Assembly (NCBI RefSeq): GCF_012952295.1
Contig: NZ_JABBCH010000002.1
Coordinates: forward strand, 124,001-188,000
From: Crystallibacter degradans
GTDB lineage: Bacteria; Actinomycetota; Actinomycetes; Actinomycetales; Micrococcaceae
Direction: 5' to 3'
DNA: 64,000 nucleotides
The notes beneath the pieces were generated by a model that saw only the letters and a list, made by a program, of their open reading frames with translations, was not told the origin of the DNA and made no database searches. Positions 60,350-63,650 of the stretch are shown here, piece after piece; within the stretch, counting starts at the first letter, position 1; each line of letters begins with the position of its first letter. A program made the translations under genes and the position numbers.

Positions 60350-60697
60350 CATGACCGGGCGGAGGCAGCGGACAAGCTCCGGCGCCGGATCGATGCGCTG
60401 TGGCGGATCGAAGGCGCTCGGATCGTCGCGGTCCTGGCGCGGGCGACCGGGGATGTCGGGCGCGCGGAGGATCTGGCCCAGGAGGCGGTGGCCGATGCCC
60501 TGGCCCAGTGGCCGGAATCCGGCATTCCGCGCAACCCCGGCGCCTGGCTCACCACGGTGGCCAAACGCAAGGCCATCGACGGATGGCGCCGGGCCGAGCG
60601 GCTCGACGAGCGCTACCGCGATATCGCCCGCGGGCTGCAGGACGAAGACGCGGTGGCTTGGGAACCGCTGGACGACGACGTGCTGCGGCTGGTGTTC
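60350..60697 (+). pseudogene. SigJ/DUF6596-type sigma factor, 5' part (disrupted)
   Basis: In the frame of 60350 the DNA reads ADKLRRRIDALWRIEGARIV, ARATGDVGRAEDLAQEAVAD and GIPRNPGAWLTTVAKRKAID, the N-terminal region-2 half of a large sigma-70-like factor of this family. It ends at LDDDVLRLVF, where the IS607-like element interrupts it. No in-frame ATG, GTG or TTG start exists at the expected place: an ATG at 60351 is one base out of frame, which suggests a one-base loss. The upstream YciI-like gene is its normal partner. Confidence 0.85.
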
Positions 60698-60768
60698 GTA
60701 ACTAGTGTCATTTCTTATGGATTTTTATCCACAAATAATGTCTCACCTTCCTGCTAGCGTAACCGTTA

Positions 60769-61341
60769 TGAAACTGTCGCAGTACTCGACGAAGGCCGGA
60801 ATGGGCTCTATCGTGCTGCGTGGGGCCGGTACAAAGCCTGGCACATTCCCGGTGCGTGGCAGGACGGGCGCGGCACCATCCACGTGCCCGGGTTCGGGTC
60901 GCTCATGGCATCCAGGGCCGCCGTTTTGCGCCCGGGTTTCCTCCGCGCCCAAAAAGGCGGACTGGGAGGGTCAGTGCCCGGCGCATGGCCGGCTACGGCG
61001 GCGCGGGGCCTCAGGTCGTGTCAGTGACCCGAGAAGCGGCCGGTGGCGTCCACGATGAACGCCCGAAGCTGATGAAGCTGCTCCGTTCGGAGGACCGGGG
61101 CACACCCGTCGGCAAACACTGTGCCCGGCTCGCCCGCGCCGGGCACACCCGCTTCGAAGTGTTCCTCGCCCTGGAAGGGCTCCGCGTCGAGGGGGCGGAC
61201 GTTGCGCAGCCTTCGGATCAGGTCGATGGCTACTTGTTGCTGATTTACTCGTTCACCGCGGGCTTGTATGGGCTGCGCGGCTCAAGACGCCGGAGCAAGA
61301 AGCTCATCGCTGCCTTTGAAGACGAAGCCGCCGGAAAATGA
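60769..61341 (+). pseudogene. IS607-family TnpA serine recombinase, multiply frameshifted
   Basis: Similarity to IS607 TnpA jumps between frames. MKLSQYSTKAGMG starts at 60769. YRAAWGRYKAWHIPGAWQDG (MerR-like helix-turn-helix end) starts at 60809 in the next frame. CARVSSAPKKADW, the catalytic-serine motif, is at 60927 in the third. RRMAGYGGAGPQVVSV and VHDERPKLMKLL onward are back in the first frame to 61341. At least three frameshifts make it nonfunctional. Its stop overlaps the tnpB start (ATGA), the normal element layout. Confidence 0.85.
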
Positions 61342-62891
61342 CGGCGACCGGGGCAGCGCAGAAGCAGGCCATCAAGGTTCGGGCGTACCCGCTGCCCACT
61401 TTCGCGAACGAGGGCAAACTCGCCCGGGTCCATGCACTGCTGGGTCCGTGGCGCGACGCCCTGGGCGGAATGCAGGCCCAGCTGCACCGGCAAATCCTCG
61501 ACGGCCAGCCCCTCATGAAGCGCATGCCAACCAAAATAACGGACCTGACGTTCACCACCGAATTGTCCGCCCGGCAGGTCAAGTCCGTTTACAACCAGAC
61601 GTTCCAAGCACTGAACGCATGGACCGGTTCGGTCAGGAACGCCGTCCGGGAGCTTATCAGCGGCTCCAGCCTGGACGATGAGACCCGGACCGTCCTCTAC
61701 CGGGTGAACGCACGGAAGGCGTGGTACGCCAAGGAACTGGTACTCCCGATAAAGGTCAATACGGCAACCGGCGAGGTCCGGCATAGCGACGGCAAACCCG
61801 GCAAGGGCTGGGCCAAGGACGAGGTACCGGTATCCGCGGAACTGTTGAAGCTCTCGCGGCGCATGGCCAAACAGGTAGGCAAGCATGCCGTTTCGCTGCC
61901 CGACCTGTCCCGGGCGAACACCATGCTCATGGACGGCACCATCGCACAGGTCGAACCCTCGAAGAACAGCTCCTTCGACTACTGGGTACGCGTCTCCACA
62001 CTGACCAAGGGCGCCGTGGCATGGATCCCGCTGAAGGCACACCGGTTCTTCGCCAATGCTCCGGGCGAGGTCTCCGGCTTCGTGCAACTCAATGTGCTCA
62101 AGGATGGCAGCCTGCAGTTCGTCCTCCAGAAAAAGTCCCCAATCGCCCGACCGCGCCCCGAGGGTGATTACCTTGGCCTGGACTGGGGGATGAAGTCCCT
62201 TTTCGCGACCAGCGACGGCCGCCTCTTCGGCGTCGGCGCGATGCCGCACCTGACGGAGCTGGACCGGCAGGCGCAGGACCTCGCCAAGAGCCTGCAACGG
62301 CAGGGCATCCGCCTCAAGACCAACCGACGCTACCGCAACTTCCAGCGCCGCATGCGCGAATACATCGTTAACGAGGTCAACCGCATCCTGAACAAGCTCT
62401 CGACCGAAGACATCCAGGGCCTTGTCGTCGAGAAGGTCGATGCCAGGGGCGGCGGGATGAGCCGGGACATGCACCGTCTGGTCACCCGCTTCGGCCGAGC
62501 GGCCATCAAGAAAAAGCTGGCATCCCTGCAAGAAGACACCGGCCTCGACGTGATCGAGGTCAACGCTGCCTACACCTCCAGGGAATGCTCATCCTGCGGC
62601 CTCGTCCATGACGGGAACCGCAAGGGACTCAAGTTTTCCTGCCGCTTCTGCGGCAGGAAAACCCACGCCGACATCAACGGTGCACGGGTCGTTCTGTCAA
62701 GACGTTCTTGGCATACCCAAGGCGACTCGAAAACCAAGTCACAGCGTGGGACAGTCCGCCGACGGCTGGACGATGTGTTCAAGGCTCGCTGGGGCTGCGC
62801 ACCGCCTACCCGAGGCTCGATAGGGATCCGGAAACCAGGCTCCCGACGCCGCCCAGCAGTGCGGCTAGTCACGGCCCCTCACAGGGGCTAA
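61338..62891 (+). CDS. tnpB: TnpB RNA-guided nuclease of an IS607-like element
   Basis: TnpB proteins cut DNA matching a guide in an RNA made from the element's right end and are related to Cas12. This 517-residue protein has an N-terminal helical/wedge region and a complete RuvC domain: D282 in LGLDWGMKSLF, E365 in LVVEKVDARG and D445 in THADINGARVV. It also has the zinc ribbon with C417, C420, C435 and C438. The C-terminal tail after the RuvC block is about 65 residues, basic and polar. No stop, frameshift or missing key residue is visible, in contrast to its tnpA partner. Confidence 0.93.
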   Translation: MTATGAAQKQAIKVRAYPLPTFANEGKLARVHALLGPWRDALGGMQAQLHRQILDGQPLMKRMPTKITDLTFTTELSARQVKSVYNQTFQALNAWTGSVRNAVRELISGSSLDDETRTVLYRVNARKAWYAKELVLPIKVNTATGEVRHSDGKPGKGWAKDEVPVSAELLKLSRRMAKQVGKHAVSLPDLSRANTMLMDGTIAQVEPSKNSSFDYWVRVSTLTKGAVAWIPLKAHRFFANAPGEVSGFVQLNVLKDGSLQFVLQKKSPIARPRPEGDYLGLDWGMKSLFATSDGRLFGVGAMPHLTELDRQAQDLAKSLQRQGIRLKTNRRYRNFQRRMREYIVNEVNRILNKLSTEDIQGLVVEKVDARGGGMSRDMHRLVTRFGRAAIKKKLASLQEDTGLDVIEVNAAYTSRECSSCGLVHDGNRKGLKFSCRFCGRKTHADINGARVVLSRRSWHTQGDSKTKSQRGTVRRRLDDVFKARWGCAPPTRGSIGIRKPGSRRRPAVRLVTAPHRG

Positions 62892-62941
62892 TGCGAATAC
62901 GTGAAGGCATGGTGAAACTTCCATGAATTCACAAACTGTTC
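62700..62941 (+). ncRNA. Presumed guide RNA (reRNA/omegaRNA) region of the TnpB element
   Basis: In TnpB systems the scaffold of the guide RNA comes from the 3' part of tnpB and the right end, and the guide lies just outside. Here the interval contains the stem GCCCCT-CAC-AGGGGC (62874-62888, the last 6 codons of tnpB) and the terminal stem GTGAA/TTCAC plus CATGG/CCATG (62901-62932). The guide would begin ACCGCCTGCCACCCC, in the sigma-factor gene. Extent inferred, not observed. Confidence 0.5.
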
Positions 62942-63637
62942 ACCGCCTGCCACCCCGTCCTCTCGCGCGAGGCCCAGATGGCCCTGACACTGCGGATCGT
63001 CGGGAGCCTGACCACGGAGGAGGTCGCGCGGCTGTTCCTGGTGCCCGTCGCCACTATCCAGCTGCGGATTGTGCGGGCCAAGAAGACCCTCGCGGCCGCC
63101 GGCGTGCCCTTCGAGGTCCTGGAACCGAATGAGTGGGGCGAGCGGCTCGGTGCGGTCCTCGGCGTCGTGTACCTCATGTTTACCGAGGGGTATGAGGCGA
63201 CGTCGGGCGACCGCTGGATCCGGCCGCACCACGCGAACGAGGCGCTGCGGATTGGCCGGATCCTTGCCGGGCTGGTGCCGCATGAGCCCGAGGCCCATGC
63301 GCTCGTGGCGCTCATGGAGTTCCAGACCTCCCGTTTCGCCGCCTGAAACCGGCCGGACGGAACACCGGTCCTGCTGGCAGACCAGGACCGGAGCCGGTGG
63401 GACCGGGCCCCAGATCCGGCGGGGCGAAGCCGCCTTGGCGTGGGCCGACGCGTTGGGCCGGGGGAGGAACAGTTATGCGCTGCAGACCGCGATAGCCCAA
63501 AGCCACGCCCTTGCGGCGAACTGCTGGCCCGGCTCGGCCGGCGGGAGGAGGCCCGCGCGGAGTTTACCGTGGCAGAGGCACTCGCCAGGAACGACCGTGA
63601 ACGGGCGGTTCTCGAAGGCAAGGCCGCCGAGGCCTGA
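62942..63637 (+). pseudogene. SigJ/DUF6596-type sigma factor, 3' part (decayed)
   Basis: The reading frame resumes TACHPVLSREAQMALTLRIV, with region-4-like SLTTEEVARLFLVPVATIQ and the DUF6596 segment RLGAVLGVVYLMFTEGYEA. A premature stop at 63344-63346 follows LMEFQTSRFAA. Beyond it the sequence continues in shifted frames: VLLADQDRSRWDRA, then RRGEAALAWADALGRGRNSY, then ELLARLGRREEARAEFTVAE. About 70 family residues between the last two pieces are missing. So the gene carries a nonsense or frameshift lesion and a deletion in addition to the insertion. Confidence 0.85.
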
Positions 63638-63650
63638 AGACCCGGAAGGC

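What the first reader, a model, noticed from the sequence alone, without database searches (positions are those of the whole stretch)
61338..62891. Intact TnpB nuclease retained beside a dead transposase
The TnpB frame is unbroken for 517 residues with D282, E365, D445 and all four zinc cysteines, yet the tnpA in the same element has at least three frameshifts. With TnpA lost, the element cannot move by itself, so an open tnpB suggests either very recent decay of tnpA, mobilisation in trans, or selection on TnpB itself. IS607-type actinobacterial TnpBs are less studied than the ISDra2 model. This is the strongest candidate for an active, undescribed RNA-guided nuclease in the window.
Basis: partly seen in the sequence, partly recalled or inferred. 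Interest (0 to 1): 0.75.

Follow-up and report, generated by a model that had tools for sequence, protein, structure and literature searches.

The report
Guided nuclease outliving its dead transposase
A small jumping element in a soil bacterium has lost the enzyme that moves it but keeps an intact-looking RNA-guided DNA-cutting enzyme, and comparison with sister copies indicates that the cutter, unlike the mover, has been protected by natural selection; the general pattern is already known in other bacteria.

Summary
An open 517-codon tnpB (61338-62891 +) with the RuvC triad and four zinc cysteines lies in a 2.25-kb IS607-type element (60693-62938) that interrupts an ECF sigma-factor gene. Its tnpA has five frame-changing indels relative to two intact relatives.

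All five left ends found (four here, one in a sister species, at different sites) share tnpA lesions, so tnpA was lost before these copies spread. Since then tnpA has drifted as if neutral, while tnpB shows purifying selection (dN/dS 0.22) and no indel in codons 1-514. In one sister copy, whose ends were paired through its empty site, 9 amino-acid changes were seen against about 33 expected if neutral.

"Very recent decay" is rejected. Selection on TnpB is supported, but copies are mosaic, so recombination with elements having a live tnpA remains a rival. Past trans-mobilisation is inferred. The last ~60 codons probably overlap guide-RNA scaffold.

Novelty is limited: PMC11061315 reports 30% of IS607 TnpAs as pseudogenes, and in PMC11870625 the plasmid advantage of such an element came from TnpB, not TnpA. 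Nuclease activity is untested.

The parts
60691..60694 (+). target motif GGTG at the left junction; TG is the inferred crossover dinucleotide
   Evidence: GGTG directly precedes the left end in 5 of 5 left ends found; the window site is uninterrupted in 8 of 8 orthologous genes examined; the TG overlap is seen at two other sites from empty alleles
60693..62938 (+). whole IS607-type element, including both copies of the TG overlap
   Evidence: left and right junctions aligned across copies, empty sites
60768..61341 (+). tnpA pseudogene (IS607 serine transposase), five frame-changing indels
   Evidence: NF033518 E=1.3e-6 on the C-terminal part; alignment with intact tnpA of L030/L031; dN about equal to dS among sister copies
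61338..62708 (+). tnpB, conserved protein part, codons 1-457, with RuvC D282/E365/D445 and Cys417/420/435/438
   Evidence: dN/dS 0.22 over the whole ORF, W-G007; start codon overlaps the tnpA stop (ATGA)
62709..62891 (+). 3' end of the tnpB frame, codons 458-517 and stop; probably overlaps the guide-RNA scaffold rather than being conserved protein
   Evidence: dN/dS 0.86 in this segment for W-G007, 0.38 for G001-G003; codons 401-510 have fewer synonymous changes than 1-400, P=0.006 (W-G007) and 0.053 (G001-G003)
62730..62938 (+). candidate guide-RNA (reRNA) scaffold ending at the right end ACAAACTG
   Evidence: MFE -81.4 kcal/mol, z -1.90, 5 of 200 shuffles at least as good; consensus fold has 56 pairs, none with a two-sided change; suggestive only
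62939..62958 (+). host sequence directly after the right end; would be the guide, matching the uninterrupted sigma-factor site next to GGTG
   Evidence: inferred from the anatomy of other TnpB loci; empty sites
60351..63637 (+). host gene (ends approximate): ECF sigma factor (Sigma70 region 2, region 4, DUF6596) interrupted by the element and with a further deletion downstream
   Evidence: PF04542 (under its cut-off), PF08281, PF20239; orthologues

Best explanation
This is a non-autonomous copy of an IS607-type element. Its serine transposase gene was inactivated in a common ancestor of a small subfamily, which nevertheless reached several sites in two species, probably with transposase supplied in trans by an autonomous relative (inferred). 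The RNA-guided nuclease gene stayed under purifying selection after that loss (shown statistically, with a recombination caveat). The likely reason (inferred from the TnpB literature) is that TnpB, with a guide RNA made from the right end plus the adjacent host sequence, cuts alleles that lack the element next to a GGTG motif, so that repair copies the element back or element-free DNA is lost; this pays even without a functional TnpA in cis.
For: Subfamily: the exact left-end pattern occurs 4 times in this genome and once in G007, with no exact match in the other 393 of 395 family genomes sampled. All 5 share a tnpA lesion; two related elements, G001 and G003, have open tnpA frames of 201 codons. 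Neutral tnpA: dN/dS 0.99 (W-G007), 1.19 (W-C36), 1.11 (G007-C36), 1.28 (W-C114), 1.68 (G007-C114), 2.73 (C114-C48, 17 changes). Constrained tnpB: dN/dS 0.22 (W-G007), like 0.21 for the pair with open tnpA (G001-G003). Indels: 7 events not common to the subfamily in about 2500 bp of tnpA, none in tnpB codons 1-514 of 6 copies (about 6.7 kb), conditional P=1e-4 with the indels at 62881, in the last codons, left out. Copy C114+C13, paired by its empty site: left-end/tnpA divergence from the window copy 31/436; tnpB codons 255-457 show 9 nonsynonymous changes against 32.8 expected if neutral for that time, Poisson P=9e-7, two-rate Fisher P=1.3e-4, N/S against tnpA P=5e-4. Catalytic residues invariant.
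Against: Copies are mosaic and tnpB is older than tnpA between copies (W-G007: tnpA 5.9% different, tnpB dS 0.24), so part of the tnpB signal may predate the loss of tnpA. For W-G007 and W-C36 the raw number of nonsynonymous changes (49 and 20) is not far below the neutral expectation (60.7 and 21.9). In the youngest matched segment (W-C36 codons 1-115) the deficit is not significant, P=0.061. For G007 against C114+C13 the rate test is weak (P=0.042 Poisson, 0.11 Fisher) although the N/S test is strong (P=5e-4). In G007 the frame changes compensate, leaving one open frame of 213 codons over tnpA; I read it as dead because the stretch aligned to the catalytic ARVSS motif (name recalled) is out of frame and has no serine, but function was not tested. 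The two tnpB halves C63 and C103 are not paired with a left end. A live tnpA hidden in an assembly gap, or another of the serine recombinases matched, cannot be excluded as helper. No two-sided compensations support the RNA fold. No expression or activity data.
Confidence: 0.6

Rival explanations
1. TnpB looks constrained because its sequence is repeatedly refreshed by recombination with autonomous elements that have a live tnpA; selection acts on those, not on the tnpA-dead copies.
For: Max-chi mosaic signals with 0 of 1000 permutations as strong for C103, G007, C114, C48 and C63, and 1 of 1000 for C36; C13 not significant (72 of 1000). From 62866 to its right end G007 is 97% identical to G001 but 79% to the window copy.
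Against: No live tnpA of this family found in this genome and only the altered frame in G007; the paired copy C114+C13 shows the deficit although its tnpB synonymous divergence (0.122) is not lower than its tnpA divergence (0.071).
Confidence: 0.27
2. TnpB has been taken over by the host (domesticated regulator or defence).
For: tnpB constrained without a working tnpA.
Against: Multi-copy, at different sites in two species, element ends kept, nuclease triad kept; three sites tested are not shared: the window and C114/C13 sites are empty in G007 and the G007 site is empty here.
Confidence: 0.05
3. Very recent decay of tnpA, tnpB simply not yet hit.
For: tnpA still recognisable.
Against: Shared lesion in 5 of 5 left ends and two species; 7 later indels.
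Confidence: 0.04
4. The open tnpB frame is a chance open frame of GC-rich DNA.
For: Chance long frames exist here, e.g. 428 aa on the other strand.
Against: Family matches, invariant residues and dN/dS far under 1.
Confidence: 0.01

Closest known systems
IS607-family insertion sequences (serine transposase TnpA plus TnpB)
   Same: gene order, overlapping tnpA/tnpB, TnpA remnant matching NF033518, no target duplication beyond a dinucleotide overlap, TnpB with RuvC triad and zinc ribbon
   Different: tnpA inactivated in the whole subfamily seen; overlap reads TG in a GGTG context instead of GG as reported for IS607 (PMC4058570, PMC6188088, passages read); TnpB frame 517 codons against an average of 390 aa in PMC11061315
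IS607 TnpBs with RAGATH-18-derived reRNA (ISFba1 and relatives, PMC11061315, passages read)
   Same: RNA-guided nuclease anatomy; 30% of TnpAs there are also pseudo proteins
   Different: no RAGATH-18 match at E<=1 in 60600-63100 (that Rfam holds this family is recalled); different target motif (AGGAG or GAGGG there)
IS607 element of a Bifidobacterium longum plasmid (L091, annotated IS607 family transposase plus RNA-guided endonuclease TnpB)
   Same: 38% identical TnpB and a TnpA 55% identical to that of G001
   Different: tnpA intact
Solo tnpB (IS1341-type) elements in Natronomonas and Haloquadratum (PMC3119063, passages read)
   Same: tnpB without working tnpA
   Different: IS200-type tnpA lineage; in Haloquadratum most tnpB are also disrupted

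Membership tests
IS607 family | serine-recombinase TnpA with N-terminal DNA-binding domain | tested here: met
   remnant matches NF033518 (1.3e-6, below cut-off); relatives L030/L031 have it open for 201 codons; the window gene itself is broken
IS607 family | no target-site duplication, dinucleotide overlap | tested here: met
   empty versus filled sites give a TG overlap only; at the window site microhomology TGTTC leaves the exact point ambiguous
IS607 family | GG overlap dinucleotide as in IS607 itself | tested here: not met
   overlap reads TG, preceded by GG in 5 of 5 left ends; described for IS607, it may not define the family
TnpB RNA-guided nuclease | RuvC D/E/D and four-cysteine zinc ribbon | tested here: met
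   invariant in 8 of 8 sequences; PF07282 above cut-off
TnpB RNA-guided nuclease | NCBIfam NF040570 above curated cut-off | tested here: not met
   90.8 against 100 bits; a naming threshold rather than a biological feature
TnpB RNA-guided nuclease | reRNA from the right end | tested here: inconclusive
   reduced synonymous change and a stable fold but no two-sided compensations
TnpB RNA-guided nuclease | RNA-guided DNA cleavage | not testable with these tools
   needs an experiment
RAGATH-18 IS607 TnpB group | RAGATH-18 RNA downstream | tested here: not met
   no match at E<=1; presence of the model in Rfam recalled
TnpB-derived dead repressors (TldR; recalled, no call) | loss of RuvC catalytic residues | tested here: not met
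   residues kept

The most novel reading that the evidence does not exclude
A transposase-dead IS607 subfamily that keeps itself, and perhaps spreads between strains, by its RNA-guided nuclease alone (a homing-like element), with the mosaic structure of its copies being the trace of TnpB-induced repair between copies.
Probability: 0.1. Interest if true: 0.7.

Novelty: new member of a known kind. Interest (0 to 1): 0.36.

Why it matters
It gives a natural case in which tnpA drifts neutrally and tnpB does not, inside one subfamily, so the question of whether TnpB pays for itself without transposition can be addressed from sequence and then tested. The general pattern is already known, so the gain is a clean example from Actinomycetota (outside its genus the nearest relatives found are about 40% identical), with an inferred target motif GGTG ready for testing.

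Tried and rejected
AlphaFold2 with 3 sequences gave mean pLDDT 41.2 and pTM 0.27: unusable, so no fold search was made. The viral-contig scan found no relative. Rfam gave only an sR14 match below its gathering score, E=0.28. phmmer's best solved structure was Cas_phi3 (7odf, 4.1e-11) over residues 377-455; with a family profile, chains labelled IS605 OrfB, OrfB_Zn_ribbon and Cas12f rank above it, so no special CasPhi link is claimed. RNA covariation was not found. Pairwise dN/dS was not taken as final because of the age mismatch between tnpA and tnpB. Literature searches for a selection test on TnpB in the held library (listings seen): TnpB/IS607/tnpA/purifying selection, any three, 20 papers; TnpB/IS607/Arthrobacter, 0 papers; TnpB/without tnpA/transposon retention, any two, 2 papers; TnpB/pseudogene/tnpA/IS605/non-autonomous/selfish, any four, 30 papers, 15 listed; TnpB nucleases/exaptation etc., 58 papers, 15 listed; TnpB/gene conversion etc., 408 papers, 10 listed; IS607/Mycobacterium/TnpB/RNA-guided, 0 papers; TnpB/IS607/nonsynonymous, 0 papers; tnpB/nonsynonymous/transposase/RNA-guided, 3 papers, none on this by title. 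None of the titles listed names such a test; the library is partial. PMC9956272 was looked at by passages and added nothing. Rows dropped before counts: plasmid hits H2 and H4-H7 were not examined for tnpA; right-end halves C13, C63, C103 were not counted as separate tnpA states; the NF033518 matches that are not copies of this element were not examined one by one.

Full report
Observation. The window lies at C37:124001-188000 of a 4.96-Mb draft genome in 124 contigs. The nearest named relative found with this protein is in Arthrobacter sp. VKM Ac-2550, 91% identical (the same element as in G007, by identical alignment). The tnpB ORF is real, 517 aa, 61338-62891 +, with a TnpB zinc-ribbon domain above Pfam's cut-off and the NCBI TnpB model just below its cut-off. 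D282, E365, D445 and the four cysteines are invariant in 8 of 8 sequences aligned. Upstream is an IS607 tnpA remnant whose stop overlaps the tnpB start as ATGA.

Boundaries and target. The left end GTAACTAGTGTC is preceded by GGTGTTN in 5 of 5 left ends. The right end is ACAAACTG or ACGAACTG in 7 of 7 right ends aligned, G001 and G003 included. The element interrupts an ECF sigma-factor gene; 8 of the 9 other genomes searched in the genus have the gene and in 8 of 8 it is uninterrupted at this point. Two other insertion sites have empty alleles: the G007 site, empty in this genome and in G001, and the C114/C13 site, empty in G007, G003 and G001. There the filled left host side ends in GGTG (one of the five empty alleles reads GATG), with a TG overlap and no other duplication. 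C114 and C13 are therefore the two ends of one copy; the left side was matched by BLAST for two of the three empty alleles, the third gave no row.

Copies. The exact left-end pattern occurs 4 times in this genome and once in G007, and in none of the other 393 of 395 genomes in the family sample; matches with 1-2 mismatches in other genomes were not pursued, and the reversed control pattern also matches in many genomes. Three right ends besides the window's lie on contigs that begin or end inside the element, as do the three other left ends, so the genome holds at least four copies, three of them split by the assembly. TnpB relatives at E<=1e-80 occur in 6 of 395 family genomes, and at E<=1e-100 in 3 of 396 phylum genomes, this genome included in both: a rare family.

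State of tnpA across 14 loci examined. Intact: G001, G003, L091 from Bifidobacterium longum, L093. Inactivated: window, C114, C48, C36 and G007 and L090, a Mycobacterium intracellulare plasmid (internal stop; separate small ORFs annotated there). None detected: L032, L033. Undecided: L023 (match to residues 1-160 of 192) and L094 (contig ends). G007 needs a remark: its frame changes compensate, so that one frame of 213 codons is open across tnpA, 52% identical to G001's TnpA; but the segment aligned to the ARVSS motif of G001 reads without serine, and EHRDR reads KHCAR (that these motifs are catalytic is recalled). So tnpB without a working tnpA is recurrent in this family.

Timing. Relative to G001/G003, all five subfamily copies share a +2 frame change in the DNA-binding part; where the sequence is present (C36 has a 92-bp deletion) they also share a +1 and a -1, and the 6-bp deletion near the end is shared by the three copies that reach it. 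KHCAR is also read in the window copy. tnpA was thus inactive before the copies were placed at different sites. On the longer branch to G001 tnpA still shows constraint (W-G001 dN/dS 0.28), so the loss is old relative to the copies but not relative to the family. Later changes in tnpA look neutral: dN/dS 0.99, 1.19, 1.11, 1.28, 1.68 for W-G007, W-C36, G007-C36, W-C114, G007-C114, and 2.73 for C114-C48 on 17 changes.

Selection on tnpB. dN/dS is 0.22 for W-G007, 0.27 for W-C36 (192 codons), 0.26 for W-C13 and 0.29 for W-C63 (263 codons each), against 0.21 for G001-G003, where tnpA is intact. Nonsynonymous changes in codons 1-457 are fewer than neutral: P=4e-17 (W-G007), 5e-4 (W-C63), 4e-6 (W-C13). 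Seven indels not common to the subfamily (one shared by C114 and C48) fall in about 2500 bp of tnpA; tnpB of six copies (6.7 kb) has none in codons 1-514, only indels at 62881, in the last three codons. Of these six, C63 and C103 are not paired with a left end. The most direct test uses the paired copy C114+C13: 9 nonsynonymous changes in codons 255-457 against 32.8 expected from the divergence of the dead tnpA region (Poisson P=9e-7; two-rate Fisher 1.3e-4).

Caveats. Copies are mosaic: C103 is G001-like to about 62472 and window-like after; G007 changes affinity near 61796; C114, C48, C63 and C36 also show breakpoints; C13 does not reach significance. tnpB is older than tnpA between copies, so some constraint may have been recorded before tnpA died; for W-G007 and W-C36 the nonsynonymous count alone is close to the neutral expectation, the youngest W-C36 segment is not significant (P=0.061), and G007 against C114+C13 is borderline on rate. 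In this genome G001's TnpA matched only fragments in the four copies; the IS607 model also matched other serine recombinases below its cut-off, which were not examined, and a live copy in an assembly gap cannot be excluded. Hence confidence 0.6 and a serious recombination rival.

Guide RNA. Codons 458-517 lie beyond the matched TnpB family and have dN/dS 0.86 in W-G007 but 0.38 in G001-G003; synonymous change drops in codons 401-510 (P=0.006 and 0.053 in two independent pairs). The last 209 nt fold stably (z -1.90, 5 of 200 shuffles as good), with one-sided but no two-sided compensations. Together this suggests, without proving, an RNA scaffold overlapping the 3' end of tnpB, as in other TnpB loci.

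Comparison with the literature (passages seen, not whole papers). PMC11061315 states that 80% of its IS607 loci encode TnpA and TnpB and that 30% of those TnpAs are pseudo proteins by frameshift or stop. PMC11870625 reports that the advantage of an IS-bearing plasmid in competition depended on TnpB's RuvC and not on TnpA. PMC3119063 describes many tnpB not linked to tnpA in haloarchaea. PMC10711439 reports that in ISXfa1 (IS607) the right-flanking nucleotide belongs to the reRNA scaffold. PMC4058570 and PMC6188088 give the GG overlap of IS607. The present case is a new member of a known kind; what it adds is a within-subfamily contrast of neutral tnpA and constrained tnpB.

Noticed in passing
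window 63346-63640: The host sigma-factor gene has further damage downstream: against close orthologues (G001, G003, G007) about 195 bp are missing near 63519, and the frame holding region 4 and DUF6596 ends at 63346 with DUF6596 matched only to position 67 of 102.
   Followed up: partly
L020 (C103), L029 (G007), L015/L016 (C114/C48), L019 (C63): Element copies are mosaics of a window-like and a G001-like lineage with significant breakpoints; the right-end region swaps independently of the rest.
   Followed up: partly
L032:5075-7180 and L033:5307-7271: In another genus of the family, TnpB-only elements (86% nucleotide identity over tnpB, 78-84% upstream) lie in otherwise unmatched surroundings, with no recognisable tnpA.
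   Followed up: partly
L030 and L031, left ends: The G001/G003 elements share ACAAACTGTCAGACCCGGAAACTAG at the left, where ACAAACTG resembles the family's own right end; whether this is target preference or a tandem remnant is open.
   Followed up: no
L090:2386-4500: A Mycobacterium intracellulare plasmid carries an open TnpB of this family behind a decayed tnpA; the upstream stretch is annotated as small separate genes.
   Followed up: partly
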